Assembly (NCBI RefSeq): GCF_020731355.1
Contig: NZ_JAJFZK010000020.1
Span: forward strand, 4,164 to 53,001
Direction of reading: 5' to 3'
Source of the DNA: Bacillus sp. REN16
GTDB lineage: Bacteria; Bacillota; Bacilli; Bacillales; Bacillaceae_L
Length of the DNA stretch: 48,838 nucleotides
The notes beneath the pieces were generated by a model that worked only from the letters and a program-made list of their open reading frames with translations, had not been told where the DNA came from and did no database searches. Every line of letters starts with the position of its first letter. Position 1 is the stretch's first letter. Of the stretch, positions 662-19,817 are shown one piece after another. The position numbers were made by a program, and so were the translations under genes.

Positions 662-675
662 AAATAAAAACCACC

Positions 676-798
676 CTACTTACTACGGAGAGGGGTGGTT
701 TTCTTGTTCTCTAGTATGTTTTTACGAAAAAAGTAGTCGCTTACTTCGCGCACTACCCCTTTCAGAGCTTCTCGTAGAAATTCAAGAAATGTTTTCAT
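676..798 (-). CDS. Short repeated peptide METFLEFLRE family, copy 1
   Basis: A 40-residue peptide starting at ATG 798 behind a GGAGGGGATGATC ribosome site. It begins MKTFLEFLREALKG and ends RKNILENKKTTPLRSK, and is clearly the same peptide as those at 16885-17031 and 31606-31749. The N-terminal half can form an amphipathic helix; the tail is strongly basic. The last codons form a GGTGG/CCACC hairpin that also works as a terminator on the plus strand. Unlike the other two copies, the conserved plus-strand promoter and the ACCTCTACCG segment are missing, because the PilZ gene lies there. Function is unknown; a type I toxin-like role is inferred from the layout of the other copies. Confidence 0.6.
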   Translation of the reverse strand: MKTFLEFLREALKGVVREVSDYFFRKNILENKKTTPLRSK

Positions 799-903
799 GA
801 TCATCCCCTCCTCTCCATTACAGGAAGGAAGTGCGACAACCAACCACACTCCAATATTCAGCTGCATTCCCAATTTATTATATGATGCAAACATTACACT
901 CTA

Positions 904-979
904 TCAATCTTCGACAAACTTCGATGCATCACTGTGACCTAGAATATGGGACGAGGGACCTGTCCCTCTGTCCCATTGC
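904..979. repeat. Interspersed palindromic repeats (CGACAAACTTCG type, then GGGAC/GTCCC type)
   Basis: Positions 904-939 match the repeat with core CGACAAACTTCG and end CACTGTGAC, seen again near 14417, 17147, 31340, 31854 and 31921. Positions 947-976 hold a GGGAC...GTCCC palindrome related to those at 13662, 13924 and 31888. Both look like REP-type elements. Confidence 0.7.
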
Positions 980-992: not shown

Positions 993-2327
993 TTATAGGA
1001 ATATATAGGCGATTGGTGTTGCGATAATTAAAGCAAGAACGGTACGTTGGAACCAAATAATGACTAGTTCAGACATTTTAATTGGAATGTCTGTTGCAAC
1101 TATACAAGGAATTGTTCCTGCAAAGAATATGATAGAGGCAACGGTAACAATTCCGAGAACGAATTTCGTAATTAATGGAGCACTTACGATTAATAATGAC
1201 GGCATAAACATTTCGACAATGCTTAGGGATGCTGCCTTGGCTGCCAACATTGGCTCTGGAATTTGAAGTGCATACGTAAATGGCAGAAATAGATATCCAA
1301 ATATATCAAAGATAGGAGTATACTTTGATAATAAAATACCAATTAACCCAATGGACATACCAGTTGGTAGGACATTCATTGTCATCTTAAATCCATCTTT
1401 CATATTTGACTGGAGATTGGACAAGATACTAGGAGACTTACCGGCAGCATCCATCCCCTCCTTCCAAGCATTTTTAATTAAATTACTTTTCACTTCTGGC
1501 TCAAGGTTTGGTTTATTTAGATAAAATTCGGTACTTTTCTTACTCAAAGGTGGTATTCTGATAGAAATCATGGTTACTAGGAATGTAGTGACCAAAGCAC
1601 TCCAAAAATATAAATTCCAAATTTCCATTAATCCTAGTGTTTTTGCAACTACAATCATGAATGGTGCGGACACCGTAGAAAATCCAGTAGCAATGATTGC
1701 CGCCTCTTTAATCGAATACTTTCCTTCTTTATATACTCGATTGGTAATCAATAGTCCTATCGAATAACTTCCTACAAAAGATGCAACAGCATCAACCGCT
1801 GATCGCCCAGGTGTCTTCCATACCGGCCGCATGATTGGTCTGCATAAAACACCAATGAATTCCAACAACCCATATCCAACAATCAATATTAAAAATGCAG
1901 AACCAATTGGAACTAAGAGGGAAAGAGGGATGATTAGTTTGTCATATAAGAATTGCCCTGAATCCTCAGCGAGAAGCCACCCTGGCCCCCAATTAAAATA
2001 GATAAGCGTTGCAAAAATTAAGCCGAGTACTTTAAAAATACTAAAAACAATATCGGTATTACTATTATTCCATTGTTTCGTAACAAAAGGATAAACAGCG
2101 CCTAAAAGAACAAGCATTAATGCATAAAAGGGCACAATCGAAGGAAATGTATTCCTTATTGCTGTCACTATATGGTCCAACATAATAGAGGAGGTTCCCC
2201 CTATTGTTACTGGGATAAAGAAGATAAAAATCCCCAACATACTTGCTAATAAAAATTTTGCAATATCCAAAACTGTATAACTTTGCAAATCAATTTTACC
2301 CTTTGCATCAATATTTGTTTGACTCAT
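993..2327 (-). CDS. YjiH-family membrane protein (nucleoside-recognition/Gate domain), last gene of the ergothioneine-type operon
   Basis: A 444-residue protein from ATG 2327, preceded by AAAGGGGGATATAGG. An in-frame ATG 57 bases upstream has no ribosome site and its extra residues are not membrane-like, so it was not used. About ten hydrophobic segments are visible. The sequence around GRSAVDAVASFVGSYSIG matches the Gate/nucleoside-recognition region of YjiH-family proteins, whose substrates are not established. As the last gene of the operon, behind the BCCT transporter, it may move a pathway intermediate, an amine or glutamate. That is inference from position only. Confidence 0.7.
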   Translation of the reverse strand: MSQTNIDAKGKIDLQSYTVLDIAKFLLASMLGIFIFFIPVTIGGTSSIMLDHIVTAIRNTFPSIVPFYALMLVLLGAVYPFVTKQWNNSNTDIVFSIFKVLGLIFATLIYFNWGPGWLLAEDSGQFLYDKLIIPLSLLVPIGSAFLILIVGYGLLEFIGVLCRPIMRPVWKTPGRSAVDAVASFVGSYSIGLLITNRVYKEGKYSIKEAAIIATGFSTVSAPFMIVVAKTLGLMEIWNLYFWSALVTTFLVTMISIRIPPLSKKSTEFYLNKPNLEPEVKSNLIKNAWKEGMDAAGKSPSILSNLQSNMKDGFKMTMNVLPTGMSIGLIGILLSKYTPIFDIFGYLFLPFTYALQIPEPMLAAKAASLSIVEMFMPSLLIVSAPLITKFVLGIVTVASIIFFAGTIPCIVATDIPIKMSELVIIWFQRTVLALIIATPIAYIFL

Positions 2328-2387
2328 CCTATATCCCCCTTTGTTTCTTTTAATCCCCTGGAGAAATTTCCCAACGACATACATAGT

Positions 2388-2406
2388 CGAGGTCAGGCCC
2401 CGACAT
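2388..2406. repeat. GTCAGGCCCC palindrome between two operon genes
   Basis: A short hairpin with arms GTCGAGG and CCCCGAC in the 94-base gap between the BCCT and YjiH genes. Its core GTCAGGCCCC recurs at 24159, 26077, 31405 and, altered, at 41931. It is an interspersed repeat inserted inside an operon and could modulate mRNA processing between the two transporter genes. Confidence 0.6.
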
Positions 2407-2421
2407 TACTAAGCATTTCTT

Positions 2422-4026
2422 TTAACCTTCAAATTCTTTCTGTATATCTTCAGTTCTTGAAGGAATAGTTCCTTTTGAATAGGATTGCATTTGATTATCT
2501 CCTTTACTTGCAATCTCTTCAAATGAGTAGTTCTCATCAAAAACAAGTCGTTTAAAAATACCCGCAAACAACATGATCATCACGATTAGAACAGGTAATC
2601 CGAAAATAGCAAGAAGTGTTTTCACACCCTCAATACCACCTGCCGTAACAAATATTACTGCTAAAGCACCCATAAGTGTACCCCAGAAAACCTTAATTGA
2701 AATTGGAGCTTCTTTTACATTGGAATCTTTCAATGACATGACCGATATAGAGGAAGTCATAGAATCGGCCATTGTTACGTACGATAACATAACTGTTAAA
2801 ATGATAAGAGGTTGTATAATATTTCCTAACGGTAAAAACTCCGCAACCTTTAACATTACACCATCAAACCCTGCTGTGTTTATATAATTCATCATGTCAA
2901 ACGCACCTGTTAATTGTAAATTTAAGGAAAATCCACCAAATGTTCCAAACCATAAGACAGCAAACATACCCGGAGCAATTAAATTGATTAAAATAAACTC
3001 TCTAATTGTTCGCCCATAACTAATGCGAGCCAGAAATAAACCAATAAGAGGTGAGAACGATAACCAATCAGCTAGATAGAATGTATCCCACCATTCTGGC
3101 CACATATCCGTATTACCAGGTGATAGAAAAACAGCTGATTCAAAGATATTATTAACGTAATGAACAAAACCTTGTGTTGTGAGGTCGATAATGTATCTAG
3201 TAGGTCCTGCGATAACCACAATCAGCATAAAAATAATAAAAATCCATGTATTTTTATCAGAAAGGAACTTTATTCCCTTCTGAAGTCCCGAAACACTTGA
3301 AATTGTATATATTACCGTAATGCAAATAGCAAGTAGAATCCAAACAACTGGACCTGACGGAATTCCAAACAGCATTTCAACGCCTGATCCTAACTGAAGA
3401 AGCCCATTTCCAAAACCACCTGCAAGACCTGAACATATAGCGATCAGGGCAATTATGTCGACAATATCTTTCCATTTACTTTTAAGAAACTTCTCTCCGT
3501 AGAAAAGAGTCATTCCACTACTAACTGTATTTGGCATTTTCATATTGTATACGGCATAAGCAATGGCTATTCCACATAGCGTATAAAGGGCATAAGGTGT
3601 AAAAGCCCAGTGTGTAAATGATTTTGCCATAGCAAATTGAATGGCGCTCGCACTGCCAGGCTCTAAGTCTACACCTTGTGGGACTTGATAAGTAAATAGG
3701 AGTGGTTCAATTGGTCCCCAAAACATAATACCTGTACCAATTCCTGCACAAAGAGCAATTGTCCAGTAGGCCCAGGTAGAAAGCTCTGCTTTTGCATCTT
3801 TACCACCGAATTTAATACGTCCTGTTTTTGAAAAAGCTAAGTAAACAATTCCAACTAGGAAAATCAAACATGTAATCTGAATGAAAGCACCAAAATACTT
3901 TGCTATAAAAAGATAGATATCCGTAACAAAGGTAGCAGTCGCATTGGAATTAATCATACTAGAACCAATAATGATTAAAAAAATAATGATCGGAACAGAA
4001 ATTACCTTAAGACGAAACTTACTCAT
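2422..4026 (-). CDS. BCCT-family betaine/carnitine/choline transporter, candidate ergothioneine importer
   Basis: A 534-residue protein from ATG 4026 behind AAAGGAGGTTATTTA. Twelve hydrophobic segments are expected. BCCT hallmarks are visible: GIGTGIMFWGPIEPL in the third-helix region, and an aromatic-rich segment with WWDTFYLADWLSF followed by GLFLARISYGRTIREF. Family members import compounds with a quaternary trimethylammonium group, usually with Na+ or H+. The operon context (trimethylamine-type lyase, thiourocanate-type hydratase, hydantoinase) makes a histidine betaine such as ergothioneine or hercynine the most economical substrate. The family call is firm; the substrate is inferred. 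Confidence 0.85.
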   Translation of the reverse strand: MSKFRLKVISVPIIIFLIIIGSSMINSNATATFVTDIYLFIAKYFGAFIQITCLIFLVGIVYLAFSKTGRIKFGGKDAKAELSTWAYWTIALCAGIGTGIMFWGPIEPLLFTYQVPQGVDLEPGSASAIQFAMAKSFTHWAFTPYALYTLCGIAIAYAVYNMKMPNTVSSGMTLFYGEKFLKSKWKDIVDIIALIAICSGLAGGFGNGLLQLGSGVEMLFGIPSGPVVWILLAICITVIYTISSVSGLQKGIKFLSDKNTWIFIIFMLIVVIAGPTRYIIDLTTQGFVHYVNNIFESAVFLSPGNTDMWPEWWDTFYLADWLSFSPLIGLFLARISYGRTIREFILINLIAPGMFAVLWFGTFGGFSLNLQLTGAFDMMNYINTAGFDGVMLKVAEFLPLGNIIQPLIILTVMLSYVTMADSMTSSISVMSLKDSNVKEAPISIKVFWGTLMGALAVIFVTAGGIEGVKTLLAIFGLPVLIVMIMLFAGIFKRLVFDENYSFEEIASKGDNQMQSYSKGTIPSRTEDIQKEFEG

Positions 4027-4155
4027 TAAATAACCTCCTTTTGGTTTAATTTTTCACATGACAAACGACTCTAAATACTGTTCTTTAAGTGTAATCCAAG
4101 AGGTAGAAGGATCCCTTAAAAGTATTAGCAATGCCGTTGCTTTATTTAGTAAAGT

Positions 4156-5631
4156 TTATACGGTTGTTTTATTAATAATCATGTTCTCAACAGCACGTAC
4201 TTTTTCTGATGGGCTTATGAGTGAAACTGTTAAACTAGTCAATTCCTCCATTAAACTCTTTAAAGGACCTTTTAAAGTAACAGAAGAAAACGTTAAGGCA
4301 CGCGTAGCGACTGTTAATTCAATCGCAATTATTAAACGCCAAATTTGCACCATTTTTTCCAATGCCTGTGCGGCTTCTGTCGCCATTGCTCCATAGTCTT
4401 CTACTCCTTCTGCAGCCATTCCGAATTGTGGTGACGTTACTTGTGCAAGTCTTGCAACTTTGCCAACCAGTGATAACACTGTATGATGCAAGACATCAAA
4501 GCCAGCATACCCTTCTTGAAAAGCTAATCCAGTTGGATATCCAGAGAAATAGGTAGTTAATAACTTTCCTACTCTCTTCTCCTGAAGTAGAATTGTTCTA
4601 AATAACGCATTACGCAAAGCATCACATTCAATGGTAAATTGGGTAGGATCAAAGTTTCCAATTGAAATTAACTCGGATGTTTCCTTTTTAAAAAATGGAT
4701 TATCTAGTGGGTTGGATACTTCATCTAGCACACAAATTTCAAACCGATTCATATAGTTTAATAAAGCTCCTTGAACGTGAGGGACACATCGGAAAGAAAG
4801 GGGATCCTGTATACTTTTAGGCTTGTATTCAATACCCGAAATCAACTCTTGTATGCGACTACCAATCTCTGAAACTTCATTACCTCGAATTGTTAAAACA
4901 TCAGACCGAAGCTGGGACGGATTTGCCTTGAATGCAATCCAGGATAGGGAAGTTGTCTTCAATGACCAATCCATATATGATTGTGCATCCCAAATGGCTA
5001 ATCCGGCGATTGCAGCGGAAAAACTGTTTGTTCCAATTAAGGCTAATGCGTCCCTTGGTTGCAATATGATTGGCTTTAATCCGGCCATTTCTAACGCCTT
5101 ACTTCCAGATACTTTCTCTCCCTTAATATAGGCTGTACCATGTCCAAGTAAAACAAGAGAGATCTGGCCAAGCTGGCCTAAATCTGCTTCGCCCACTGAA
5201 CCCCACTTGTTCACTACTGGAGTAATGTCTGCATTTAGTAAATTAAGTAATGCCAGAAACGTTTCTGGAGAAATTCCCGACCCTCCCTGGGCAAGAGCAT
5301 ATAAACGATTAAATATCGTAGCCCGAATAACATCTTTTGATACTTCTGGTCCAACTGCACTTGCATGTTCTATAATAATCGCTTCATTATAATTCCTAAG
5401 ATTTTCTTCTGATAATCGGATCTCTTTTTGTGATCCCAAACCAGTTGTTAATCCGTAAATGGAAGTTTCACTTTTGATAAATGATTTGACTTTATCATGT
5501 GCTTCCCGTAAATTTTTCATGACTTCTGCACTAACAGATACCTTTGCATTTTTCCTAGCTACACAAATTATGTCGTGTAATGTATTTCTCTTTCCTGTAT
5601 CTATAAAAATGGTAGAATTAGAAAGTTCCAA
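4156..5631 (-). CDS. Ergothionase-like lyase (aromatic amino acid lyase fold lacking the MIO triad)
   Basis: A 491-residue protein from TTG 5631 behind a GGGGGG ribosome site. It follows the histidine ammonia-lyase fold throughout: the Tyr loop YGLTTGLGS at residues 59-67, helix segment EHASAVG near 89, and C-terminal EGVEDYGAMATEAAQ. However, the site where Ala-Ser-Gly cyclises to the MIO cofactor reads GSVGEADLGQL (144-154), with no ASG. The second catalytic Tyr of HAL (QDxYSLRC) is Leu278 in QDPLSFRC. It therefore should not act as a normal histidine ammonia-lyase. Ergothionase, which eliminates trimethylamine from ergothioneine, is recalled as a MIO-free member of this fold. Operon partners fit that reaction. 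Other betaines (hercynine, S-methyl-ergothioneine) remain possible. Confidence 0.75.
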   Translation of the reverse strand: MELSNSTIFIDTGKRNTLHDIICVARKNAKVSVSAEVMKNLREAHDKVKSFIKSETSIYGLTTGLGSQKEIRLSEENLRNYNEAIIIEHASAVGPEVSKDVIRATIFNRLYALAQGGSGISPETFLALLNLLNADITPVVNKWGSVGEADLGQLGQISLVLLGHGTAYIKGEKVSGSKALEMAGLKPIILQPRDALALIGTNSFSAAIAGLAIWDAQSYMDWSLKTTSLSWIAFKANPSQLRSDVLTIRGNEVSEIGSRIQELISGIEYKPKSIQDPLSFRCVPHVQGALLNYMNRFEICVLDEVSNPLDNPFFKKETSELISIGNFDPTQFTIECDALRNALFRTILLQEKRVGKLLTTYFSGYPTGLAFQEGYAGFDVLHHTVLSLVGKVARLAQVTSPQFGMAAEGVEDYGAMATEAAQALEKMVQIWRLIIAIELTVATRALTFSSVTLKGPLKSLMEELTSLTVSLISPSEKVRAVENMIINKTTV

Positions 5632-5683
5632 TATACTTCCCCCCTCTATTTTTGAATTTCACAAAAGTTCAAAAAACAAACGA

Positions 5684-7327
5684 TTACCTCTGACCCGGTA
5701 TTTTCAATCCAAATTGCTCCGCTGTTTCTATCGCTTTCTCATAACCAGCATCAAAGTGTCTAACTACTCCAATAGCTGGGTCATTTGTAAGACAACGTTC
5801 AATTTTCGCTTCAGCTTCGTCAGTCCCGTCCGCAATCACAATTAATCCAGATGACATCCACCCTTCTGAGTTCATTCCCGCTGAACCATGGACTGCCACA
5901 AGGTCTGCTCCCCCGCTCGTATTAAGTAATGCATTTAAAATGGGCCAATCGGCTACCCCATCCGTACCATCCTTCATCCCTTCTGTCTCTCGGTTTGGCA
6001 TTGTAACAGATCCGGTATCCAAGTGATCTCGGCTAAAAGCAACAGGTCCTTTTAATTCCCCACGTCGATAGAGGTCATTCACGATTTTCCCGAACTTTGC
6101 CCTTTCTCCTAAACTGAGCCAACAAATCCGTGCAGGTAAGCCTTCAATTGGTACTACCTTTCTTGCCATCTGAATCCAGTTAATCATCGTTTGATTTTCT
6201 GGAAATGCCTCCATAATGGCATCCTCTGTTTTCCGCAGATCCTCAACATCCCCAGATAAACAAATCCAGCGGAAAGGACCTCTGCCTTCACAAAAATGCG
6301 GGCGGATATATTCAACAACAAATCCCTTTATTTTTTTTGAATATTGGTATCCAGCTTCTTCTGCCTGATATCGAATAAAATTACCATATTCAAAGACCGT
6401 GACCCCGTCATCCTTGAAACGAACCATTGCATCAATATGACGAACGATTGTTTCCTTTGCTTTTTCGATATAACCGTCTGGATCCTCGGTTCGTAATTCC
6501 TTTGCCGTTTCAACCGAATAACCAGATGGAATATATCCATACAATGGATCATGTGCAGATGTTTGATCTGTTACAATATCTGGGCGGAAACCAGATTCAT
6601 AGAGTGATGAAAAGACGTCAGCTGCATTCCCTAAAATGGCAATCGATTTTGCTTCTCCCTTTTCTTTTGCATCTATTGCAAGCTGAATCGCTTCTTCAAT
6701 ACTTTCCGTAAAAGTATCACAGTAGCCAGTCTCCAAACGACGTTTAATTCTTTCCTTGTCTATCTCAGCGACTAGACAAACACCGCCTAATAACTTAACA
6801 GCAAGCGGCTGGGCACCACCCATCCCTCCAAGTCCACCGGTTAGTACGATCCGACCTTTCATTGAACCTTCAAAATCTTTTTTTGCACAGGCTGCAAAGG
6901 TTTCATAGGTACCTTGTAAAATTCCTTGAGTACCAATATAGCACCATGAACCAGCTGTAAACATTCCATTCATCATCAAACCTTGCTTCTCCATTTCAAG
7001 AAAACGACCAAACGTCTCCCATGATTTAACTAAATGAGCATTAGCAATCATGACTCTTGGTGCATAGCGATGTGTTTTTAAAACCGCAACTGGTTTACCG
7101 GATTGTACAATTAGAGTTTCATCCTCATTAAGGTTTTTAAGGGCATCTACAATCAGATAAAAACTATCCCAGTTTCTAGCCACCTTTCCGGTTCCACCGT
7201 AAATAACTAAATCCTGAGGACGCTCTCCATTATTCAACGTGTTCTCAAGCATCCTTAGAATCCCTTCCGTAAGCCAACTTTTACAACGCATTTCCTTCCC
7301 AATCTCCGGAACTGTCTTAAAACTCAC
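5684..7327 (-). CDS. Urocanate hydratase family protein, probable thiourocanate hydratase
   Basis: The start is GTG 7327, behind AGAAGGGGGATTGATAAA; its bases overlap the TGA of the preceding gene (GTGA), indicating translational coupling. The 547-residue product is the normal length for HutU. The longer open frame upstream is rejected because it lies inside the previous gene and lacks homology. Visible are the NAD-binding GGLGGMGGAQ segment, TAGSWCYIGTQGI, and the active-site FCEGRGPFRW. Members add water to urocanate using tightly bound NAD+ as an electrophile. Next to a MIO-less lyase and hydantoin-processing enzymes, and with no hutI or hutG nearby, the likely substrate is thiourocanate (or an S-substituted form). 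Confidence 0.8.
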   Translation of the reverse strand: MSFKTVPEIGKEMRCKSWLTEGILRMLENTLNNGERPQDLVIYGGTGKVARNWDSFYLIVDALKNLNEDETLIVQSGKPVAVLKTHRYAPRVMIANAHLVKSWETFGRFLEMEKQGLMMNGMFTAGSWCYIGTQGILQGTYETFAACAKKDFEGSMKGRIVLTGGLGGMGGAQPLAVKLLGGVCLVAEIDKERIKRRLETGYCDTFTESIEEAIQLAIDAKEKGEAKSIAILGNAADVFSSLYESGFRPDIVTDQTSAHDPLYGYIPSGYSVETAKELRTEDPDGYIEKAKETIVRHIDAMVRFKDDGVTVFEYGNFIRYQAEEAGYQYSKKIKGFVVEYIRPHFCEGRGPFRWICLSGDVEDLRKTEDAIMEAFPENQTMINWIQMARKVVPIEGLPARICWLSLGERAKFGKIVNDLYRRGELKGPVAFSRDHLDTGSVTMPNRETEGMKDGTDGVADWPILNALLNTSGGADLVAVHGSAGMNSEGWMSSGLIVIADGTDEAEAKIERCLTNDPAIGVVRHFDAGYEKAIETAEQFGLKIPGQR

Positions 7328-8583
7328 TTTATCAATCCCCCTTCTAATATAGTTTTGGAAAAACTTTGTACCATATTTAAAATGGCTGTTGCACCTAGGG
7401 CAAGATCTTCCTTTTCTGCCCATTCTTCCGGACAATGACTTCGACCATCCCGACATGGAATAAATAGCATACCCACAGGCCCAATTAACGATATTTGATT
7501 TGCATCATGTCCGGCTCCACTCGGAAGTTCTATAACAGGATTCGTGACCTTCTCACATGATTCGCGCAACATTAATTTAATTTGATCTTGCACGACAATT
7601 GGAGTCGAACGTGAAATTGATTCAATTGTTACTTTTAATCCTCGACGATTCGAAATAGCATTTGCTTGTGTAATAAAATGTTCACACACCTTATCAATAA
7701 CATTTGATGAAATACTACGAACTTCCACGGAAAAGGTCACCCTCCCAGGAACCACGTTTGAACCATTTGGAAAATTATTAAATTCCCCGACTGTTCCTAC
7801 GACAGGAGCATCATAGGTTTCATTAGCAATCCTTTCTAACTGTAGAGACATTTCACATGCCCCATTCAATGCATCGTTCCTCATATTCATTGGCGTTGTA
7901 CCCGCATGATTAGGCAGTCCTTCTACTGTCACATGATAACGTTGAATCCCAACGATTCCAGAAACAACACCCAATGAGGATTGTTTTTTCAGCAATACCG
8001 GTCCCTGTTCGATATGAAGTTCTAAATAAAGGGCGATTGTATCTGCTTTTCGTTGGATTGTATGAATTTCTTTTGGATTCCCGCCTGACCGTCTAATGGC
8101 TTCAGCTAATGTTTCTCCTGCCTTGTTCGTATATGAAAGCATATCTTCAGTCAAATTCCCTGACCAAGCGCGGCTGCCTACAGTGGACAAACCATATTCA
8201 GATGGTTCTTCCGCTGTAAAATCAACTAATTCAATTGGGTATTCAAGTATGATTCCTTTCTCATTCAAGGTACGGAGAACCTCTAGTCCCACCAACACAC
8301 CTGAAATACCGTCAAACCTCCCGCCATCTTGTACCGTATCTGTATGTGAGCCGATAACGATTGGAGGTAAAGAAGGGTTTTGTCCCGCTCTCCGACCTAT
8401 GATATTTGCTGCGGCATCTACCTCTATTTCTAACCCAGCGGCTTCCATTTTTCGAATTAACCAATCACGCCCTTCATTATAGAGCTTTGAAAAAGAACGT
8501 CTGGTCCAGGGTTGACCTGACTCTGTATACGTTGCTAATTCCATCACATCTTGCCATAAGCGATCCGCATTTATGATGTTCAT
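7324..8583 (-). CDS. M20-family N-carbamoyl-L-amino acid hydrolase, probable N-carbamoylglutamate hydrolase
   Basis: A 419-residue protein starting at ATG 8583 with an ideal TGGAGGTGATAGAA site; an in-frame start 24 bases upstream lacks one. Dimetal ligands of the HyuC/AllC branch are visible: GSHTDT (His80), GGRFDG (Asp91), FTAEEPSE (Glu125/126), ELHIEQGP and a final RSHCPEEW. Family enzymes remove carbamoyl from N-carbamoyl amino acids or act on allantoate. Behind a hydantoinase, and followed without a gap by the hydratase gene, decarbamoylation of N-carbamoyl-L-glutamate to glutamate, CO2 and ammonia fits best. Allantoate amidohydrolase is the alternative, but no other purine genes are present. 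Confidence 0.8.
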   Translation of the reverse strand: MNIINADRLWQDVMELATYTESGQPWTRRSFSKLYNEGRDWLIRKMEAAGLEIEVDAAANIIGRRAGQNPSLPPIVIGSHTDTVQDGGRFDGISGVLVGLEVLRTLNEKGIILEYPIELVDFTAEEPSEYGLSTVGSRAWSGNLTEDMLSYTNKAGETLAEAIRRSGGNPKEIHTIQRKADTIALYLELHIEQGPVLLKKQSSLGVVSGIVGIQRYHVTVEGLPNHAGTTPMNMRNDALNGACEMSLQLERIANETYDAPVVGTVGEFNNFPNGSNVVPGRVTFSVEVRSISSNVIDKVCEHFITQANAISNRRGLKVTIESISRSTPIVVQDQIKLMLRESCEKVTNPVIELPSGAGHDANQISLIGPVGMLFIPCRDGRSHCPEEWAEKEDLALGATAILNMVQSFSKTILEGGLIK

Positions 8584-8626
8584 TTCTATCACCTCCACAA
8601 TTTTCATAATCTAGTAACTTAACAAT

Positions 8627-10030
8627 TTACACTTGTACAGTCCCTTTATTACCTTTAATCGGAAGCAGTGAATCATGTGTTGCGCGAACAAAACGGCCCT
8701 GTCCTTGTGTTGAAACCACATTTTCTCCGTCATAAACTAGTTTTCCTCGTACAAATGAATGAGTGATTTTCCCTTTTGCTTCATACCTGTCATACAAGCT
8801 CCATCCCGCAAAGCTGTGTTGGTTTTCATTTTTTATGAGGAACGATTGGTTAGGGTCGATAATAACGATATCAGCATCTTTACCTACTTCTATTGAACCT
8901 TTCTGATCAGACAATCCGTATACACGGGCTGGGTTTGTAGACATTAAACGGATAAAATCAAAGATAGATAGTCTTCCTTCCATGACACCCTCTGAGAATA
9001 GAACTGGAAATAAGGTCTCAACACCTGGTGAACCAGAGGCATTTTCTAAAATTACCTCACTTTGTTTACGATCAAGCTGCCATGGAGCGTGGTCAGATGC
9101 AACAAAGCTGATATCCCCTGTTTGACACATTTCCCAAAGGGCTTCCATATCTTCCTTCTGACGTAGTGGAGGGTTAATTTTTGCTTTTGCCCCAAACGTT
9201 TTCATATTTTCTTCTGTAAAAGTTAAATATTGAATACAGGTTTCAACACTCACTTTTACACCTTCCTCTTGATATCTTTTAACAAGCTCTATCGCACGGG
9301 GAATTGTTGTATGATGAAAATGCAAGTGAACACCAGTCCATTTAGCAAGCTCTAGAGCCGTCGCAACAGCTGCTGCTTCGGCAACTGCTGGCCTTGCTTC
9401 ACAATGAATCATCGGATCCTTTTGATCCTTGTCTTCCACTAGCTTAGAATAGTAGCGAACGATATCATCATTTTCCGCATGTAACCCAACTGCTCTTCCT
9501 GCTTCTTTTAATTCTTTAAAAGCTGCTACCATTTCACCTTCATGAATGCGTGGAAAACGATATGAATGTGTATTGAATGTTGACATCTTAAAACCACATG
9601 CACCCATTTCTGTTAGTTCATGAATAACAGATAAATCACCGCCTGGGCGAATAGTGGCAAGAACCGCAACATCTACATGCGCTTCATTTTGGATCAAATC
9701 AAGCTTCTTATTAAATTTTTCGGCACTCCAAACAGGTTCATCCGCATCATATGGCATCTCAATAATTGTAGTAATCCCACCTGCTGCTGCCGATCGGGTT
9801 GCGCCTTTAACTCCTTCACGCGGTTCGCTATAGCAGTGTACGTGGGCGTCAATTCCTCCAGGCAATATCCAAGAGCCATTCGTATCGAGAATTGAATCCG
9901 CCGTTACATCTTGATTTCCATCATAAATTGCTACAATCTTTTCATTATTTATCGCAATAACTGCGTTATCTGCTATTGTTCCATTTGGTAGTGGTAATTT
10001 CCCTTTTATAATTTGTTCATAATGTGCCAT
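8627..10030 (-). CDS. Dihydropyrimidinase/allantoinase-type cyclic amidohydrolase, probable hydantoin-5-propionate hydrolase
   Basis: A 467-residue amidohydrolase-superfamily enzyme. Metal ligands appear in order: DAHVHC (His63, His65), bridging Lys148 in GFKMST, GLHAEN, LHFHHT and ASDHAPW. The pattern is that of allantoinases and hydantoinases, which open five- or six-membered cyclic ureides. Its ATG shares one base with the TAA of the IclR gene (TAATG), so translation is coupled. In the proposed pathway it opens hydantoin-5-propionate to N-carbamoylglutamate, the substrate of the next enzyme. Allantoinase activity cannot be excluded by sequence alone. Confidence 0.8.
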   Translation of the reverse strand: MAHYEQIIKGKLPLPNGTIADNAVIAINNEKIVAIYDGNQDVTADSILDTNGSWILPGGIDAHVHCYSEPREGVKGATRSAAAGGITTIIEMPYDADEPVWSAEKFNKKLDLIQNEAHVDVAVLATIRPGGDLSVIHELTEMGACGFKMSTFNTHSYRFPRIHEGEMVAAFKELKEAGRAVGLHAENDDIVRYYSKLVEDKDQKDPMIHCEARPAVAEAAAVATALELAKWTGVHLHFHHTTIPRAIELVKRYQEEGVKVSVETCIQYLTFTEENMKTFGAKAKINPPLRQKEDMEALWEMCQTGDISFVASDHAPWQLDRKQSEVILENASGSPGVETLFPVLFSEGVMEGRLSIFDFIRLMSTNPARVYGLSDQKGSIEVGKDADIVIIDPNQSFLIKNENQHSFAGWSLYDRYEAKGKITHSFVRGKLVYDGENVVSTQGQGRFVRATHDSLLPIKGNKGTVQV

Positions 10031-10830
10031 TAAGTGTAACTCCTTTCTTTCAAATGAATCGTTCCATTGTAATTTAATTTTTTCGAAATTAACAAACCCG
10101 CTTCCACAACAAGCTCTCCGTATTTTTCGATGTTTTCCATCGATATTCTCTCGGTAATGCCCAAAATACTCACTGCCCCAACAACATTAGCATCCTTATT
10201 AAAGATTGGAGATGCAACCGCACTCACTCCCAAATCAAGTTCTCCATGACTGATTGCATAACCTCGTCTTCTTGACTCCAAAAGCTCGTTGTTTAACGTT
10301 TCTTTTGAGGTTACCGTGGAATGAGTAAAAGCTTCTAGTGGTGTTTCGGTAATATAATCAAATAACTCTTTTTTTGGAAGAAAAGCTAGCATTGCTTTCC
10401 CTGTTGCAGCAGCATAGAGTGGAGAAAATCTACCTACCAAGTGTGTAACATGAACAGGTGCATCGCTTTCAACTTTATCTAAGCACTGCGCCTTGTCTCC
10501 TACAAGGGAGGAAAGAGTGACTGTTTCGTTACAAAGCCGTGAAAGCCTATCAAGCTCCGGTTTAGCAATTCGTTGTAAACTAATTGAAGAATCAAATTTG
10601 TCAACAATCATTTGAAATTCTTCAACCCGTAAACCATAGCTCCCATCGTCATACTGGTATACAAACCCTCTTTTTTGAAGAGTTTTTAAAATACGAAAAG
10701 TAGTGGGTTTATTGAATTTCATCTCCCCAGCTAATTCACCGACTGTAATTGATTGATTAATTTGTGCTAAATATGAAATAACTTGTAGTCCTTTATCTAA
10801 TGTTTGAAGAATATCAGGGTATTTATCCAA
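10030..10830 (-). CDS. IclR-family transcriptional regulator of the operon
   Basis: A protein of about 266 residues. A winged helix-turn-helix (SITVGELAGEMKFNKPTTFRILKTLQKRGF) occupies the N-terminus and an IclR effector-binding domain follows (VTHLVGRFSPLYAAATGKAMLAFL; GYAISHGELDLGVSAVASPIF). I chose TTG 10830 because GAGGTG lies nine bases before it; the in-frame ATG at 10854 has no ribosome site. The gene sits inside the operon it probably controls. TTTCTAT/ATAGAAA palindromes at the operon promoter (13169-13220) are the likely targets. The effector may be the imported betaine or thiourocanate (inferred). Confidence 0.85.
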   Translation of the reverse strand: MDKYPDILQTLDKGLQVISYLAQINQSITVGELAGEMKFNKPTTFRILKTLQKRGFVYQYDDGSYGLRVEEFQMIVDKFDSSISLQRIAKPELDRLSRLCNETVTLSSLVGDKAQCLDKVESDAPVHVTHLVGRFSPLYAAATGKAMLAFLPKKELFDYITETPLEAFTHSTVTSKETLNNELLESRRRGYAISHGELDLGVSAVASPIFNKDANVVGAVSILGITERISMENIEKYGELVVEAGLLISKKLNYNGTIHLKERSYT

Positions 10831-10860
10831 TCTAAGAAGCACCTCATTTAACATTTTTTA

Positions 10861-11535
10861 TCAATTGCTTGGTTGTTTACTAGAATGAAAGACAATCTGT
10901 TTTAGTTTTTCAATTGCAAGGCTCTGCGGTCCATAAACCGAACACCCATACGTTTGCTCAAGTCTATCTGAAAATTCAACATCGTATCCATAACAGTCTA
11001 GAAAAACATAATCTGGTTGTAACGTCTCAATATGAGATTTCATTTGCTCAAGCGTATCAATTGCTCCCGGTTCTACAGTTCGAATGATTTTTTCTCCCTT
11101 TATAGCACTCCACTTTTTCTTTGTATCCTCCAACTGATCTTGTAATGGAATAAAAACTAATACTCGATTCGTGTCTTGTACTTCTCTGCCTTTGTCCCTC
11201 ATTTCCAAAACTGGCTGCACAATTTGCATCCTTTTGGATGAACAATCGAACTCACCCATACAAAGAATGACCGCAGCCGATGAGACTGTTTCATATTTTT
11301 TAACTAATTCTTGCATTTTGGATTCAATATAATCATGTCCAATATTGGCAGTTCCGTATCTTGTTCGAACAAAAAGCAATGGTTCTCCCCCATGCTCTTG
11401 AAGCTTTAAAATTTCTTGCTCGGAAAGCTCGTCAAGTACTCCTACTAGATTCAGTTCCTGTTCAAATTTTGCATATTGAAATGGTCCAAGTAAATCAGGT
11501 CGTGGAGTTTGACCAATCGTGAATAGAGTAATCAT
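10861..11535 (-). CDS. AroM-family protein, possible two-cysteine hydantoin/Asp-type racemase
   Basis: A 224-residue protein from ATG 11535, six bases after AGGAGG (a GTG one codon earlier is too close to it). The N-terminus TLFTIGQTPRPDLL is typical of the AroM family, whose function is not established. Two cysteines sit in equivalent-looking strand ends, VILCMGEF (Cys92) and VFLDCYGYD (Cys181). This spacing resembles the catalytic pair of cofactor-independent Asp/Glu/hydantoin racemases. Within a hydantoin-producing pathway a racemase role is attractive, since the hydratase product may epimerise and the carbamoylase is usually L-specific. That role is inference. Confidence 0.6.
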   Translation of the reverse strand: MITLFTIGQTPRPDLLGPFQYAKFEQELNLVGVLDELSEQEILKLQEHGGEPLLFVRTRYGTANIGHDYIESKMQELVKKYETVSSAAVILCMGEFDCSSKRMQIVQPVLEMRDKGREVQDTNRVLVFIPLQDQLEDTKKKWSAIKGEKIIRTVEPGAIDTLEQMKSHIETLQPDYVFLDCYGYDVEFSDRLEQTYGCSVYGPQSLAIEKLKQIVFHSSKQPSN

Positions 11536-11551
11536 CACGCACCTCCTATTA

Positions 11552-13102
11552 TCATTTTTTTAGTTTAGCTGTATTTGGATATTGACTTGGAGGAGTATAG
11601 AATTGATTGATTCTTTCAACACCCTCGTCATATAAGCTTCTTAAATATGGTTTTAATTTTTCAGCTTGAATCATTGAATCATCATAAACCTTCATACCAC
11701 GCTCAATCACGTTATATAGAACCTCGACATCTCTTCCCTCATCAAATTGTGTTGGTTTTCCATGGTCTAGGACAAGTTCTCCATCAACAAATACATACGT
11801 GATTTCTCCAAGCCCAACATGGACAAGTTGACGAGCCAACATACCTGGCTTTTGGAAACGAGAATCTCTCCTCATTACGACTAAGTCCGCTAATTTGCCT
11901 ACCTCAATATTTCCAGTTTCATGATTGGTCAACATTCTTGCGCCATTTGTTACCGCCATATCAAAGGATTCTTCTCCGGAAATCCAATAATCTGGATTCG
12001 GTGTTGATAACCGATGAATAAGTGCGGCTAATTTCATTTGATCGCTAATTGAGTATGCATCACTGGAATCACCACCATCTGTGCCAAATCCGATATTTAG
12101 GCCCTCATCCCTTAAATGAAGAACAGGACTTAATCCACTACCTGTTCGTGAGTTGCTGCATGGATTATGCACAATATGTACGCCTCGCTCAGCTAGCTGT
12201 CTCATTTCTTGGGATTCAATCCATATGACATGTGCAGCAATAAAATTGTTGTGTAATGCTCCGATGCGGTCTAAATAAGCAATAATTCCTCCTTCAAAAT
12301 TCGTTTGTGATTGGATACGTTGACGCCTCGTTTCAAGTAAGTGAGTATGTAATAATGTCTGATATCTGTGTGCTAATTCTACTGATTTCTCAAAGGTGTC
12401 TTTCTTGCAGAAGGTAGGGGCGCCTGGTCCAACAATTACTTGCATTCGCTCAATTCCATCTTTTCTTGCCATAAGGATTGACTCCTCGACAATTTGAAGC
12501 TGTTCATTTCCTGTAAGAGCTGGGGGCTTTTCAAAAATTTCTCGATGTTCCAAAGGAATTTGATATGACTTGAGACTATAATTTTCTTGCATGGATACAT
12601 CCACAATGCTAGGGGCTAAAATCCCACGAATCCCACTTGTTTTTAACCCATTATAAGCGGACTCAATCGACTCACCAGTTAAAGCCGGACGTAAAAACAT
12701 GTGGTCGAGCACTGTTGTCACTCCGTTTCTTAACAACTCCAATGCCGAAAGCCGTTCTATTGATTCAACCTCTTTTGGTGTTAAATTAACGGCTACATCT
12801 AATGCCGATTTAAATGGTACCCAAGGCTCTAATGGAAGATTATCGCGAACACTTCGCTGCCAATATTCCAACAGATGTGAATGGCAATTATGCAACCCCG
12901 GGAATATGACCATCCCTTGGCAGTTAATTATTTCTACCTTCCCATGAAGAAGATCCTCGTTTGGATCAATCTTTGATTTAACTTGTAAAATTCGGTTATT
13001 GCGAATCAATACATCTTCTTTCACCACATGCCACTCATTATTATTTTTCTTTAATATTTCGCCATCTTTTAATAAAAGATAATGTTCTTTATTTTTAACC
13101 AT
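11552..13102 (-). CDS. Amidohydrolase (atrazine chlorohydrolase/guanine deaminase branch), candidate thioxo-imidazolidine desulfhydrase
   Basis: The first gene of the operon; 516 residues from ATG 13102 behind GAAGGAGGAAAC. Single-metal amidohydrolase ligands are visible: NCHSH (His74, His76), LHTHLLET, AAHVIW and GFGTDGGDSSDA. The branch displaces amino, chloro or thio groups from amidine-like ring carbons. In the proposed pathway something must replace sulfur by oxygen on 3-(5-oxo-2-thioxoimidazolidin-4-yl)propanoate, giving hydantoin-5-propionate and sulfide; this enzyme is the best candidate in the operon. The alternative is hydrolysis of another ring. The family is firm, the substrate inferred. 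Confidence 0.7.
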   Translation of the reverse strand: MVKNKEHYLLLKDGEILKKNNNEWHVVKEDVLIRNNRILQVKSKIDPNEDLLHGKVEIINCQGMVIFPGLHNCHSHLLEYWQRSVRDNLPLEPWVPFKSALDVAVNLTPKEVESIERLSALELLRNGVTTVLDHMFLRPALTGESIESAYNGLKTSGIRGILAPSIVDVSMQENYSLKSYQIPLEHREIFEKPPALTGNEQLQIVEESILMARKDGIERMQVIVGPGAPTFCKKDTFEKSVELAHRYQTLLHTHLLETRRQRIQSQTNFEGGIIAYLDRIGALHNNFIAAHVIWIESQEMRQLAERGVHIVHNPCSNSRTGSGLSPVLHLRDEGLNIGFGTDGGDSSDAYSISDQMKLAALIHRLSTPNPDYWISGEESFDMAVTNGARMLTNHETGNIEVGKLADLVVMRRDSRFQKPGMLARQLVHVGLGEITYVFVDGELVLDHGKPTQFDEGRDVEVLYNVIERGMKVYDDSMIQAEKLKPYLRSLYDEGVERINQFYTPPSQYPNTAKLKK

Positions 13103-13168: not shown

Positions 13169-13220
13169 GTTTCTATTATAGAAACACTCATTTCTATTTT
13201 TGGTATGTAGATTATAGAAA
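13169..13220 (-). promoter_or_regulatory. IclR-type operator palindromes
   Basis: A perfect inverted repeat GTTTCTAT-T-ATAGAAAC lies at 13169-13185. Two further half-sites, TTTCTAT at 13191 and ATAGAAA at 13214 (overlapping the -10 box), continue the series. Placed over and just after the promoter, they suit repression by the IclR protein encoded in the operon (inferred). Confidence 0.6.
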
Positions 13221-13239
13221 GAAACCTTCGGGGTGTCAA
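13211..13239 (-). promoter_or_regulatory. Consensus sigma-A promoter of the ergothioneine-type operon
   Basis: On the minus strand TTGACA (13239-13234) is followed after exactly 17 bases by TATAAT (13216-13211), a perfect consensus. Transcription would start near 13204, about 100 bases before the first gene. Such strength suggests tight repression, consistent with the overlapping palindromes. Confidence 0.75.
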
Positions 13240-13353: not shown

Positions 13354-13390
13354 CAAAAAAACCCCTCTTCTAAAAATAGGAAGAGGGGGT
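13354..13390 (-). terminator. Riboswitch-associated intrinsic terminator
   Basis: On the minus strand an ACCCCCTCTTCC stem closes with GAAGAGGGGT and is followed by seven T residues. It lies 27 bases after the SAM-I aptamer, the normal expression platform of S-box leaders in Bacillaceae. Confidence 0.9.
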
Positions 13391-13416
13391 AAATTACATA
13401 TAAGTGACCTACTCTT

Positions 13417-13515
13417 CTTATCTACTAGCTTTAAAGCTACTGGAATTGGCACAGTTCTTAAATAAGTCCGCTGCCGAGGTATCAAAGGGCCAGTCCCTCC
13501 ACCTCTCTGGATAAG
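13417..13515 (-). promoter_or_regulatory. SAM-I (S-box) riboswitch aptamer
   Basis: The minus strand shows the S-box consensus in order: P1 arm CTTATC, then AGAGAGGTGGAGGGACTGGC, CCTTTGATACC, CGGCAGC, and the closing P1 arm GATAAG at 13422-13417. With the terminator directly after it, S-adenosylmethionine binding should end transcription. The first gene downstream on this strand is the sulfur-releasing amidohydrolase of the ergothioneine-type operon at 13102, with its own promoter between. Read-through under methionine/SAM shortage would add to operon expression. No methionine gene lies on this strand before the operon. Confidence 0.93.
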
Positions 13516-13546
13516 AAAAAATCAGAAGTATTAAATTATGGAAATT

Positions 13547-13575
13547 ACTTTACTCTATTAAAAATGAATTGTCAA
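13547..13575 (-). promoter_or_regulatory. Promoter of the SAM-I leader
   Basis: Minus-strand TTGACA (13575-13570), a 17-base spacer and TAAAGT (13552-13547); the aptamer begins about 30 bases downstream. Confidence 0.65.
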
Positions 13576-13661: not shown

Positions 13662-13900
13662 TCCTTCGGTCCTATCGTAGAATACTAAATTAATAGTATA
13701 ACAGTAGAGTTCACAATCCTTTATTCTTTACTTTAAAAAATCAAACAAACGTTTGATTGAATTTGTAGTTACTCGATATTATTGACTTAGGCCGTTAAAC
13801 AATCGTTTGTTTGAAATTAGTGTTTTTGCAAAATGGTCGATTGGTACAGATTTTCTTAAATCGCGATATAGATATTCTATTATAATAATTTATTTTTGAT
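13662..13900. repeat. Paired-palindrome repeat, copy a
   Basis: The segment begins with a GGGACAGGTCC palindrome (about 13650-13674). It continues with ATACTAAATTAATAGTATAAC, a sequence also at 41610. Two palindromes of the CAAACAAACGTTTGTTTG type have centres at 13750.5 and 13804.5, exactly 54 bases apart. The tail TTCTATTATAATAATT recurs at 41802. No gene is seen here. Related copies lie near 25877, 41666, 42047 and 48656. Confidence 0.75.
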
Positions 13901-14416: not shown

Positions 14417-14452
14417 TCAATCTTCGACAAACTTCGGGGCGTCACTGTGACC
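14417..14452. repeat. CGACAAACTTCGG...CACTGTGAC repeat forming the end of a transposase ORF
   Basis: This copy of the dispersed repeat supplies the last dozen codons of the RAYT gene (GHSDAPKFVED and stop) on the minus strand. Confidence 0.8.
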
Positions 14453-14995
14453 GTTCCCCACCCCTCCACAATACTTCCTCTTCTGTTCCGATGGTGTCCC
14501 TTCATAGTAATCCAGTATACTCCTAACATTCATAAAAGCCGGAATGTCTTTATTCTCATTCTTATAATACTTATAGCTACTCCACGGATAGTTTTCTGGC
14601 AGTTTTACCATTTTAGCCTCGACGGGATTGAGATGAATGTAACGGCTTACCTCCAACATGCCTTCCTTTGTCCCAATTACTTTGTCGTAAAAACGCTTCT
14701 CATATACATGGCCAGTGAGACGGTATTTTGTATTATGGTAATTGGCATAGCGTTTATTCATCAGGCCCATGATTTTGGAAATAGGTGTTTCAAATGAGCG
14801 TAGCTGTAAGTGATAATGATTGTTCATGAGGCAATAGGAGGCCATTTCAAAAGGTTTTTTTTCATAGAGTTGTTGAATGATGTGGAGAAACGCTTCAAAA
14901 TCACTAGCATTTCGAAATAATGGATCTCTACGATTCCCCCGGCAGACAATATGGTAAAACTGCCCTGGTATAAAAATTCGTTTCTTATAAGGCAT
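14417..14995 (-). CDS. REP-associated tyrosine transposase (RAYT, Y1_Tnp), copy 1
   Basis: A 192-residue Y1 transposase. The N-terminal FYHIVCRGNRRDPLF, the HUH motif MNNHYHLQL and the region GHVYEKRFYDKVI with candidate catalytic Tyr are visible. YIHLNPVEAKMV and YPWSSYKYY are typical of RAYTs. These enzymes nick single-stranded hairpin DNA and are linked to dispersal of REP sequences. The start ATG shares a base with the TAA of the yifB-like gene (TAATG), so the two were translated together. The C-terminus runs into a dispersed repeat and may be non-native. The HTH-like tail found in many Firmicute RAYTs is missing. Confidence 0.85.
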   Translation of the reverse strand: MPYKKRIFIPGQFYHIVCRGNRRDPLFRNASDFEAFLHIIQQLYEKKPFEMASYCLMNNHYHLQLRSFETPISKIMGLMNKRYANYHNTKYRLTGHVYEKRFYDKVIGTKEGMLEVSRYIHLNPVEAKMVKLPENYPWSSYKYYKNENKDIPAFMNVRSILDYYEGTPSEQKRKYCGGVGNGHSDAPKFVED

Positions 14996-16824: not shown

Positions 16825-16945
16825 AATATACTAAAAAGACGAAGTGCTTGTAACCTCTACCGACAGGGTGGTGGTTGTCAAAACCTATTTTGTTTTTCGA
16901 AAACCACCCTGCTTACTACGGCGAGGGGTGGTTTTCCTGTTCTCT
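16825..16945 (+). ncRNA. Candidate antisense RNA of short-peptide module, copy 2
   Basis: TTCATGTATAAT at 16812-16823 is shared with copy 3 and provides a -10 box. The RNA would contain ACCTCTACCGACAGGGTGG and end at the hairpin AACCACCC...GGGTGGTT (about 16901-16936) followed by a T-rich stretch. It overlaps the 3' end of the peptide gene on the other strand. No strong -35 is seen. Confidence 0.45.
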
Positions 16946-17031
16946 AGTATGTTTTTCCGAAAAAAATAAGCGCTGACTTCTCGCACTATCCCTTTCAGAA
17001 ATTCTCGTAGAAATTCAAGAAATGTTTCCAT
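16885..17031 (-). CDS. Short repeated peptide METFLEFLRE family, copy 2
   Basis: A 48-residue peptide from ATG 17031 with an AAGGGAGGTGATAATC ribosome site. It reads METFLEFLREFLKGIVREVS, then AYFFRKNILENRKTTPRR and a basic Gly/Lys tail. Conservation with copies 1 and 3 is at the protein level with silent differences, which favours a real gene. The 3' end is overlapped by the candidate plus-strand RNA, the arrangement of Bacillus type I toxin-antitoxin pairs. No clear transmembrane helix is present, unlike known toxins of that type, so the toxin label is only inferred. Confidence 0.65.
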   Translation of the reverse strand: METFLEFLREFLKGIVREVSAYFFRKNILENRKTTPRRSKQGGFRKTK

Positions 17032-17921: not shown

Positions 17922-17931
17922 TTTTGGCCCC

Positions 17932-19788: not shown

Positions 19789-19817
19789 TGTAATCAGCCA
19801 CTTTCTTTTTAAAATTG

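What the first reader, a model, noticed from the sequence alone, without database searches (positions are those of the whole stretch)
993..13102. Complete candidate ergothioneine-utilisation operon in a Bacillus-type genome
Seen: one co-directional run with overlapping start/stop codons encoding a MIO-less HAL-fold lyase, HutU-like hydratase, ATZ/TRZ-type amidohydrolase, hydantoinase, N-carbamoyl amino acid hydrolase, BCCT transporter and IclR regulator, with no hutI or hutG. Known: the ergothioneine route described in Burkholderia goes through thiourocanate, a thioxo-imidazolidine propionate, hydantoin-5-propionate and N-carbamoylglutamate to glutamate. Inference: each chemical step has a matching gene here, including uptake of a trimethylammonium betaine.
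Basis: partly seen in the sequence, partly recalled or inferred. Interest (0 to 1): 0.88.

Follow-up and report, generated by a model that had tools for sequence, protein, structure and literature searches.

The report
Riboswitch-controlled ergothioneine-like sulfur operon
A Bacillus relative carries a rare gene set that probably strips sulfur and glutamate from ergothioneine or a close derivative; it sits behind a sulfur-status RNA sensor and lacks the known sulfur-removing enzyme, so its exact substrate is open.

Summary
The nine-gene, minus-strand operon is real, and its lyase lacks the MIO triad. The glutamate end of the route (hydantoinase, carbamoylase) belongs with enzymes of known Bacillales ergothioneine operons. 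The front half does not. The lyase lies outside the clade of the characterised Treponema-type ergothionase, on a long branch with two uncharacterised relatives (49% and 40%). The hydratase branches beside thiourocanate and S-methyl-thiourocanate hydratases but fails the curated cut-offs of both and passes only that of urocanate hydratase. The known desulfurase family (DUF917/PF06032) has no match in the whole genome; an ATZ/TRZ-type amidohydrolase and an AroM-like protein are present instead. I read the operon as a sulfur-scavenging system for a C2-sulfur-substituted histidine betaine: ergothioneine itself or, about as likely, an S-substituted form such as S-methylergothioneine. It works like the ergothioneine pathway but fails tested membership features, so I call it a new variant. 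Substrate, sulfur release and riboswitch action are inferred, not shown.

The parts
13547..13575 (-). promoter-like site upstream of the riboswitch (TTGACA-17-TAAAGT)
   Evidence: consensus scan, 10 of 12; promoter-like sites in the region are no more frequent than in shuffles (39 against 40.1), so weak
13415..13517 (-). SAM riboswitch aptamer (S-box, RF00162)
   Evidence: 89.3 bits against gathering score 44.4, E 5e-20, full model 1-108
13355..13388 (-). intrinsic-terminator-like hairpin with U tract directly after the aptamer; an alternative antiterminator pairing with the aptamer P1 3' strand is possible
   Evidence: fold -16 kcal/mol, z -2.57; antiterminator appears when P1 5' strand and terminator 3' arm are blocked.
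13211..13239 (-). second promoter-like site between terminator and first gene (TTGACA-17-TATAAT, 12 of 12)
   Evidence: would bypass the riboswitch if active
11552..13102 (-). ATZ/TRZ-type amidohydrolase, proposed to displace the C2 sulfur group
   Evidence: Pfam Amidohydro_1 145.8 bits; solved relatives include several named triazine hydrolase; motifs NCHSHL, LHTHLLE, AAHVIW, GTDGGDSSD begin at 72, 251, 289, 340 (their metal-binding role is recalled)
10861..11538 (-). AroM-like protein, possibly a racemase
   Evidence: Pfam AroM 101.6 bits; two Cys invariant in 4 of 4 aligned; relation to Asp/Glu racemases inconclusive
10030..10854 (-). IclR-type regulator
   Evidence: Pfam IclR_C and HTH_IclR
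8627..10030 (-). ErtD-like hydantoinase (hydantoin-5-propionate amidohydrolase)
   Evidence: NCBIfam NF058539 496.9 bits, below cut-off 650, best of its matches; nests with two Bacillales-type ergothioneine-operon enzymes, SH-aLRT 97
7324..8607 (-). ErtE, N-carbamoyl-L-glutamate amidohydrolase
   Evidence: NCBIfam NF058540 562.4 bits, above cut-off 520
5684..7327 (-). urocanase-family hydratase, separate lineage; likely GTG start at 7327 (listed ORF runs to 7456)
4156..5631 (-). MIO-less HAL-fold lyase, proposed trimethylamine lyase
2422..4026 (-). BCCT betaine-type transporter
   Evidence: Pfam BCCT 420.8 bits
993..2384 (-). Gate-domain membrane protein, possible second transporter
   Evidence: Pfam Gate 48 bits; function not known

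Best explanation
A sulfur-scavenging catabolic operon for a histidine betaine that carries sulfur on imidazole C2 (ergothioneine, or an S-substituted form such as S-methylergothioneine). Proposed steps, all inferred: BCCT imports the betaine; the MIO-less lyase eliminates trimethylamine to a 2-thio-type urocanate; the hydratase makes the thio- or alkylthio-imidazolone propionate; the ATZ/TRZ amidohydrolase replaces the C2 sulfur group with oxygen, freeing sulfide or methanethiol and giving hydantoin-5-propionate; the ErtD-like hydantoinase opens the ring; ErtE gives glutamate, ammonia and CO2; the AroM-like protein may racemise an intermediate. The SAM riboswitch lets the operon be read when SAM, and so methionine and sulfur, run short; IclR probably senses substrate. 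Shown here: gene order, family matches, tree positions, no DUF917 match in the genome, riboswitch match plus foldable terminator.
Against: No enzyme was assayed. The hydratase's best NCBIfam match is urocanate hydratase, which it passes (757.7 against 375), its best solved relative is a urocanase (703 bits; thiourocanate-type 7ned 580), and its nearest rows by path and identity (55%) in the tree are urocanate hydratases; the thio-side placement rests on one supported branch and a long end branch. A perfect promoter-like site lies between terminator and first gene and could bypass the riboswitch. None of 21 other stretches scanned has an S-box, so the regulatory link has no conservation behind it. 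The genome's hut hydratase is broken by a frame change in the assembly, so a backup role in histidine use cannot be ruled out.
Confidence: 0.6

Rival explanations
1. Plain ergothioneine (thione) pathway: the same chemistry as the reconstituted five-step route, with the ATZ/TRZ protein as a non-orthologous desulfurase releasing sulfide. This is one half of the best explanation.
For: ErtD/ErtE kinship; ergothioneine is the common natural compound (background); hydratase shares 5 of 12 columns that separate TUH plus SMTUH from HutU, and matches TUH at 13 against SMTUH at 6 of 30 columns that separate those two.
Against: 11 of 12 lyases in 11 loci with a thiohydantoin-type DUF917 gene carry Lys or Arg where the window has His383; the exception is a second lyase of L100 (Tyr). 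The hydratase has Cys129 instead of the Gln of both thio types and keeps the Arg that TUH lost. No DUF917 match in the genome.
Confidence: 0.32
2. S-methylergothioneine (or another S-substituted or S-oxidised form) is the substrate; the ATZ/TRZ protein displaces methanethiol (or sulfite), which sulfhydrylase-type enzymes of the S-box regulon could turn into methionine. The other half of the best explanation.
For: No Lys/Arg of the thione-type lyases; the MIO-less lyase of an S-methyl-type operon (L209, same operon as L150) has Leu there. The hydratase keeps Arg446 (RETE) and Tyr (EYGN) as in S-methyl hydratases, though HutU has them too. Solved kin of the ATZ/TRZ protein include triazine hydrolase, recalled to remove S-methyl groups. 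A SAM riboswitch would fit methanethiol to methionine. S-methyl-ergothioneine is a minor metabolite in humans given ergothioneine (PMC7653990, passage).
Against: The hydratase matches SMTUH at only 6 of 30 columns that separate TUH from SMTUH and fails the SMTUH cut-off; the known S-methyl route also uses DUF917; His can carry a charge; only one S-methyl-type MIO-less lyase was available, and the other S-methyl locus (L152) has a MIO-type lyase.
Confidence: 0.28
3. Histidine or hercynine (histidine betaine) use: the lyase and hydratase feed ordinary imidazolone propionate, and the hydantoinase genes serve something else.
For: Hydratase's best family and solved matches are urocanate hydratases. 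Actinobacterial relatives of the lyase sit beside hut genes and have Tyr at the His383 position; L071, in the window's lyase clade, lies beside hutU-, hutI-, ErtE-like and a weakly ATZ-like gene and has Tyr; own hutU is frame-broken.
Against: No hutI/hutG in the operon; hydantoinase and carbamoylase lie in the same gene run and are of the Ert type; the hydratase is not inside the HutU group of the tree.
Confidence: 0.14
4. The S-box is a remnant or drives nothing here; the operon runs from the second promoter under IclR and is not a sulfur system. It can be true beside the substrate readings above.
For: Perfect promoter-like site at 13239-13211 downstream of the terminator; repeats and a species-specific segment suggest rearrangement; no S-box at 21 other stretches.
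Against: Aptamer match is full length and terminator and alternative pairing can fold; no other sizeable gene lies between it and the operon.
Confidence: 0.18

Closest known systems
Five-step bacterial ergothioneine pathway (Beliaeva, Leisinger and Seebeck 2021, seen only as a reference, content recalled; NCBIfam thiourocanate hydratase, thiohydantoin desulfurase, ErtD, ErtE)
   Same: Same order of chemical logic, IclR regulator, ErtD/ErtE-type ends, MIO-less lyase, urocanase-type hydratase; such operons occur in genomes of the same order (L064, L065)
   Different: Different lyase clade, hydratase below cut-off, no DUF917 match in the genome, ATZ/TRZ and AroM genes instead, SAM riboswitch leader; BCCT transporter instead of the OpuC-type of L064/L065 (BCCT also occurs beside lyases in L066 and L132)
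S-methyl-thiourocanate route (NCBIfam NF058531, NF058532; loci L150/L209, L152)
   Same: Hydratase keeps the Arg and Tyr that TUH lost (as does HutU); operon plan with IclR, carbamoylase and hydantoinase; lyase of L209 also MIO-less without Lys/Arg at that position
   Different: Hydratase 703 bits against cut-off 880; no S-methyl-thiohydantoin desulfurase; lyase only 24.5% identical to L209's
Ergothionase of Treponema denticola (PDB 6s7j)
   Different: His383 in place of the family Lys; separate clade; closer by sequence score to a Thermoplasma HAL (194 against 136 bits)
S-box (SAM-I) riboswitch regulon
   Same: Full aptamer with terminator, one of 16 in the genome
   Different: Stands before a betaine catabolic operon rather than methionine synthesis or transport genes

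Membership tests
Known ergothioneine catabolic operon (ErtA-E type) | MIO-less HAL-fold lyase | tested here: met
   GSVGEA-DLGQL, no ASG triad
Known ergothioneine catabolic operon (ErtA-E type) | Lyase in the clade of the characterised ergothionase | tested here: not met
   Separate clade with L070 and L071; the 9-row clade that holds L066 lies apart; L066's lyase gives 505 bits to 6s7j (as L029), the window lyase 136. The 6s7j sequence itself was not in the tree
Known ergothioneine catabolic operon (ErtA-E type) | Thiourocanate hydratase (NF058530) | tested here: not met
   671.1 bits against cut-off 930; L065 control 1024.8. L060, in a DUF917 operon, also fails at 766.9 but ranks this model first; the window ranks hutU first
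Known ergothioneine catabolic operon (ErtA-E type) | DUF917-type thiohydantoin desulfurase (PF06032 / NF058529) | tested here: not met
   0 matches in the whole genome; found in 3 of 3 other genomes searched the same way
Known ergothioneine catabolic operon (ErtA-E type) | ErtD hydantoin-5-propionate amidohydrolase | tested here: inconclusive
   496.9 bits against 650, but the canonical L065 enzyme also fails at 520.7; nests with L064/L065 in the tree
Known ergothioneine catabolic operon (ErtA-E type) | ErtE N-carbamoyl-L-glutamate amidohydrolase (NF058540) | tested here: met
   562.4 bits against 520
Known ergothioneine catabolic operon (ErtA-E type) | Release of trimethylamine and sulfide from ergothioneine | not testable with these tools
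   needs enzyme assays
S-methyl-thiourocanate route | S-methyl thiourocanate hydratase (NF058531) | tested here: not met
   703.3 bits against 880; L150 and L152 controls 975.8 and 970.6
S-methyl-thiourocanate route | S-methyl thiohydantoin desulfurase (NF058532, PF06032) | tested here: not met
   no PF06032 match in the genome
Histidine utilisation (hut) | MIO-type HutH | tested here: not met
   MIO triad absent; TIGR01225 hutH 276.1 bits against 539.15
Histidine utilisation (hut) | Urocanate hydratase (TIGR01228) | tested here: met
   757.7 bits against 375; L065 and L150 thio-type hydratases also pass this broad cut-off
Histidine utilisation (hut) | hutI and hutG in the unit | tested here: not met
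   none of the nine genes passes such a family; the ATZ/TRZ protein gives hutI only 38.1 bits against 298.15
SAM riboswitch (S-box, RF00162) | Covariance-model match above gathering score | tested here: met
   89.3 against 44.4 bits
SAM riboswitch (S-box, RF00162) | Expression platform (terminator and antiterminator) | tested here: met
   predicted folds only; not listed by the consensus scan
SAM riboswitch (S-box, RF00162) | SAM binding and control of this operon | not testable with these tools
   needs reporter or transcription assay

The most novel reading that the evidence does not exclude
A SAM-riboswitch-controlled methionine-salvage pathway from S-methylergothioneine (or another S-substituted histidine betaine), built from a new trimethylamine-lyase lineage, a third lineage of C2-substituted urocanate hydratase, and a triazine-hydrolase-type amidohydrolase that displaces methanethiol in place of the DUF917 desulfurase.
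Probability: 0.25. Interest if true: 0.8.

Novelty: new variant of a known kind. Interest (0 to 1): 0.6.

Why it matters
Ergothioneine is a widespread antioxidant, and its fate in soil and gut is poorly known. An operon that ties its breakdown, or that of its S-methyl form, to a SAM riboswitch would show bacteria using it as a sulfur and methionine source, not only as nitrogen or carbon. It would also suggest a second, non-homologous solution to the sulfur-removal step, one that searches based on the known desulfurase would miss. The MIO-less lyase family around it is broad and largely uncharacterised, so substrate assignment here would help annotate many genomes.

Tried and rejected
The first genome-contig scan with the lyase alone found no relatives; a second scan with a two-sequence alignment returned the best 80 of 192 confirmed loci. 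The AroM-like protein folded alone gave an unusable model (pLDDT 35.9), and a profile comparison with one Asp/Glu racemase was inconclusive (probability 4.4%, E 0.0094), so a racemase role is only a guess from two Cys invariant in four sequences and a racemase-family gene in a DUF917 locus (L154). I considered that the operon filled a simple empty site between the PilZ-like gene and the YifB-like pieces; a second copy region in the genome (L173) is not colinear, so that was dropped. I considered calling the hydratase S-methyl type outright; the column counts do not support it. The His383 argument is weak alone because His can be charged. The structural search puts ergothionase first but tied with HAL, so it does not decide. 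Ten paper searches, some with capped lists, showed no listed paper on this variant or on a riboswitch before such an operon; I read titles, abstract starts and, for six papers, passages only. The key biochemical papers did not appear in the listings, and their content is recalled.
Full report
Observation. The window holds nine co-directional minus-strand genes from 13102 down to 993. In order of reading they are an ATZ/TRZ-type amidohydrolase, an AroM-like protein, an IclR regulator, a hydantoinase, a carbamoylase, a urocanase-family hydratase, a HAL-fold lyase, a BCCT transporter and a Gate-domain membrane protein. The hydratase ORF as listed overlaps the carbamoylase by 133 bases; homology begins near residue 50, and a GTG at 7327 with a purine-rich stretch upstream, overlapping the carbamoylase stop, is the likely start.

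Setting. The genome (G000, 4.6 Mb, 73 contigs, 100% complete by the tool's figure) has a separate hut cluster with a MIO-type HutH and genes placed like hutU, hutI and hutG (the last two labels by position and eye); its hutU is split between two frames in the assembly. There are two lyases and two urocanases. In the family search, all 17 genomes match at E 1e-30, but each of the 19 matches other than the window's (one of them the own HutH) carries the ASG triad. At E 1e-52, 7 of 396 genomes of the order and 52 of 398 of the phylum match, own genome included in both, the others at 33% identity or less. Own genome included, the AroM-like gene matches 3 of 393 genomes at E 1e-12 (others at 26% or less) and the amidohydrolase 9 of 393 at E 1e-55 (others at 36% or less). 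Similarity to two same-genus genomes stops at about base 661-667, where a repeat begins (667-938, copies at 16900-17181). The operon therefore seems to sit in a species-specific segment.

End of the route. The carbamoylase passes the curated ErtE cut-off (562.4 against 520) and the hydantoinase scores best with ErtD models, below cut-off, as does the enzyme of the canonical operon L065. In a tree of 14 hydantoinases the window protein joins the two Bacillales-type ergothioneine-operon enzymes L064 and L065 (SH-aLRT 97); the split L060 copy and the cut L132 copy were too short to enter. The ErtE tree, of 19, is weaker and has no starred set holding the window. This makes hydantoin-5-propionate, N-carbamoylglutamate and glutamate the likely last intermediates.

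Canonical comparators. Loci L064 and L065, from genomes of the same order, carry a thiourocanate-type hydratase, a DUF917 protein, IclR, hydantoinase, ErtE, an OpuC-type transporter and a lyase; the L065 hydratase and DUF917 protein pass the thiourocanate hydratase and thiohydantoin desulfurase cut-offs. A Deinococcus plasmid has a similar set. Agrobacterium and Lichenihabitans plasmids carry proteins that pass the S-methyl versions. The pathway was reconstituted in vitro in 2021 by Beliaeva, Leisinger and Seebeck; I saw only the reference and recall the content, including that it is known in Firmicutes. So a plain ergothioneine operon in a Bacillus relative would not be new in kind.

Front half: hydratase. 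NCBIfam scores are 757.7 for hutU (cut-off 375), 703.3 for S-methyl (cut-off 880) and 671.1 for thiourocanate hydratase (cut-off 930); its best solved match is a urocanase, 703 bits, against 580 for 7ned and 554 for 8q9v. Against this, in a tree of 20 (cut or deviant L064 and L143 copies left out) it is sister to TUH plus SMTUH (99/96) and outside both, on an end branch of 1.04, although its nearest rows by path are urocanate hydratases and its highest identity is 55% to one. Of 12 columns that separate TUH plus SMTUH from HutU it matches the former at 5, HutU at 3, neither at 4; position 129 is Gln in both thio types, Ile in HutU and Cys here. Of 30 that separate TUH from SMTUH it matches TUH at 13, SMTUH at 6, neither at 11. 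It keeps the Arg of the RETE motif that TUH lost; among the solved S-methyl-type chains that residue is Ala in 8q9u and Arg in 8q9v (that these are the S-methyl enzyme is recalled), so it was evidently of interest to those authors.

Sulfur-removal step. PF06032 (named S-Me-THD_N) has no match in the genome but is found in 3 of 3 other genomes searched the same way. The operon's ATZ/TRZ amidohydrolase has the family's metal motifs (roles recalled), and its solved relatives include triazine hydrolases, recalled to hydrolyse S-methyl and halide groups. It is the best candidate for replacing the C2 sulfur group, but no close characterised relative was found.

The leader. Rfam finds a complete SAM riboswitch at 13517-13415 on the operon strand (89.3 bits), followed at once by a terminator-like hairpin, which the consensus scan did not list. 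Folding gives aptamer plus terminator as the best structure (-57.8 kcal/mol, z -2.98, 2 of 200 shuffles as good) and an antiterminator when the competing strands are blocked. The genome has 16 such riboswitches. The 312-nt gap to the first gene lies within the 37-412 nt of the other 15 by mechanical ORFs, and holds no ORF over 43 aa on that strand. No S-box was found in 21 other stretches; one of these is this genome's hut region, and only for L064 and L065 did I fetch the leader on purpose (L212, L213). A second, perfect promoter-like site after the terminator may give riboswitch-independent transcription, though promoter-like sites as a class are no commoner here than in shuffles (39 against 40.1).

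Conclusion. The simplest reading is a sulfur-scavenging variant of the ergothioneine route for a C2-sulfur histidine betaine. Sulfide from ergothioneine and methanethiol from an S-methyl form are close to equal in likelihood. It works like the known pathway, but three tested defining features of the known pathway and two of the S-methyl route are not met, so it is not filed as a member of either.

Noticed in passing
L068 10980-11400 (G000 contig 54): The hut-operon urocanate hydratase of the same genome is split between two frames in the assembly; could be real or a sequencing error.
   Followed up: partly
L072, L073, L074, L075: Actinobacterial MIO-less lyases sit beside hutU-like genes (ErtE-like in L072, L074, L075; hutI-like in L072 and L075) and have Tyr at the His383 position; they may be hercynine (histidine betaine) lyases feeding the hut route.
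   Followed up: partly
L102, L110, L111, L116, L120, L121, L125, L126 and others: Many proteobacterial MIO-less lyases lie near OpuC-type betaine transporters, with no hydratase or hydantoinase found in the fetched stretch; perhaps a broad, uncharacterised family of trimethylamine lyases.
   Followed up: no
L150 9873-15770, L152 9870-10481: S-methyl-type operons on Agrobacterium and Lichenihabitans plasmids include a glutathione S-transferase family gene, and L150 also a molybdopterin S/N-oxide reductase (annotations), hinting at conjugated or S-oxide substrates.
   Followed up: no
L199, L201 (G000 contigs 14 and 30): Other S-box riboswitches in this genome precede a putative cyclase and an isochorismatase-family gene, perhaps further sulfur-scavenging routes.
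   Followed up: no
window 14417-16451 and 24633-25670: Two sets of a small transposase-like gene (REP-associated type, by eye) beside incomplete YifB-like ATPase pieces; related copies elsewhere in the genome.
   Followed up: partly
window 667-938, 13672-13897, 16900-17181: Repeated stretches lie on both sides of the operon and have matches on contig 32 of the genome.
   Followed up: partly
window 17232-22395: Amino-acid-type ABC transporter genes with an opine-dehydrogenase-like gene and a GntR-type regulator (all by eye).
   Followed up: no
window 25721-25787: Rfam Bacillaceae-1 RNA (81.3 bits), supporting a Bacillaceae origin.
   Followed up: no
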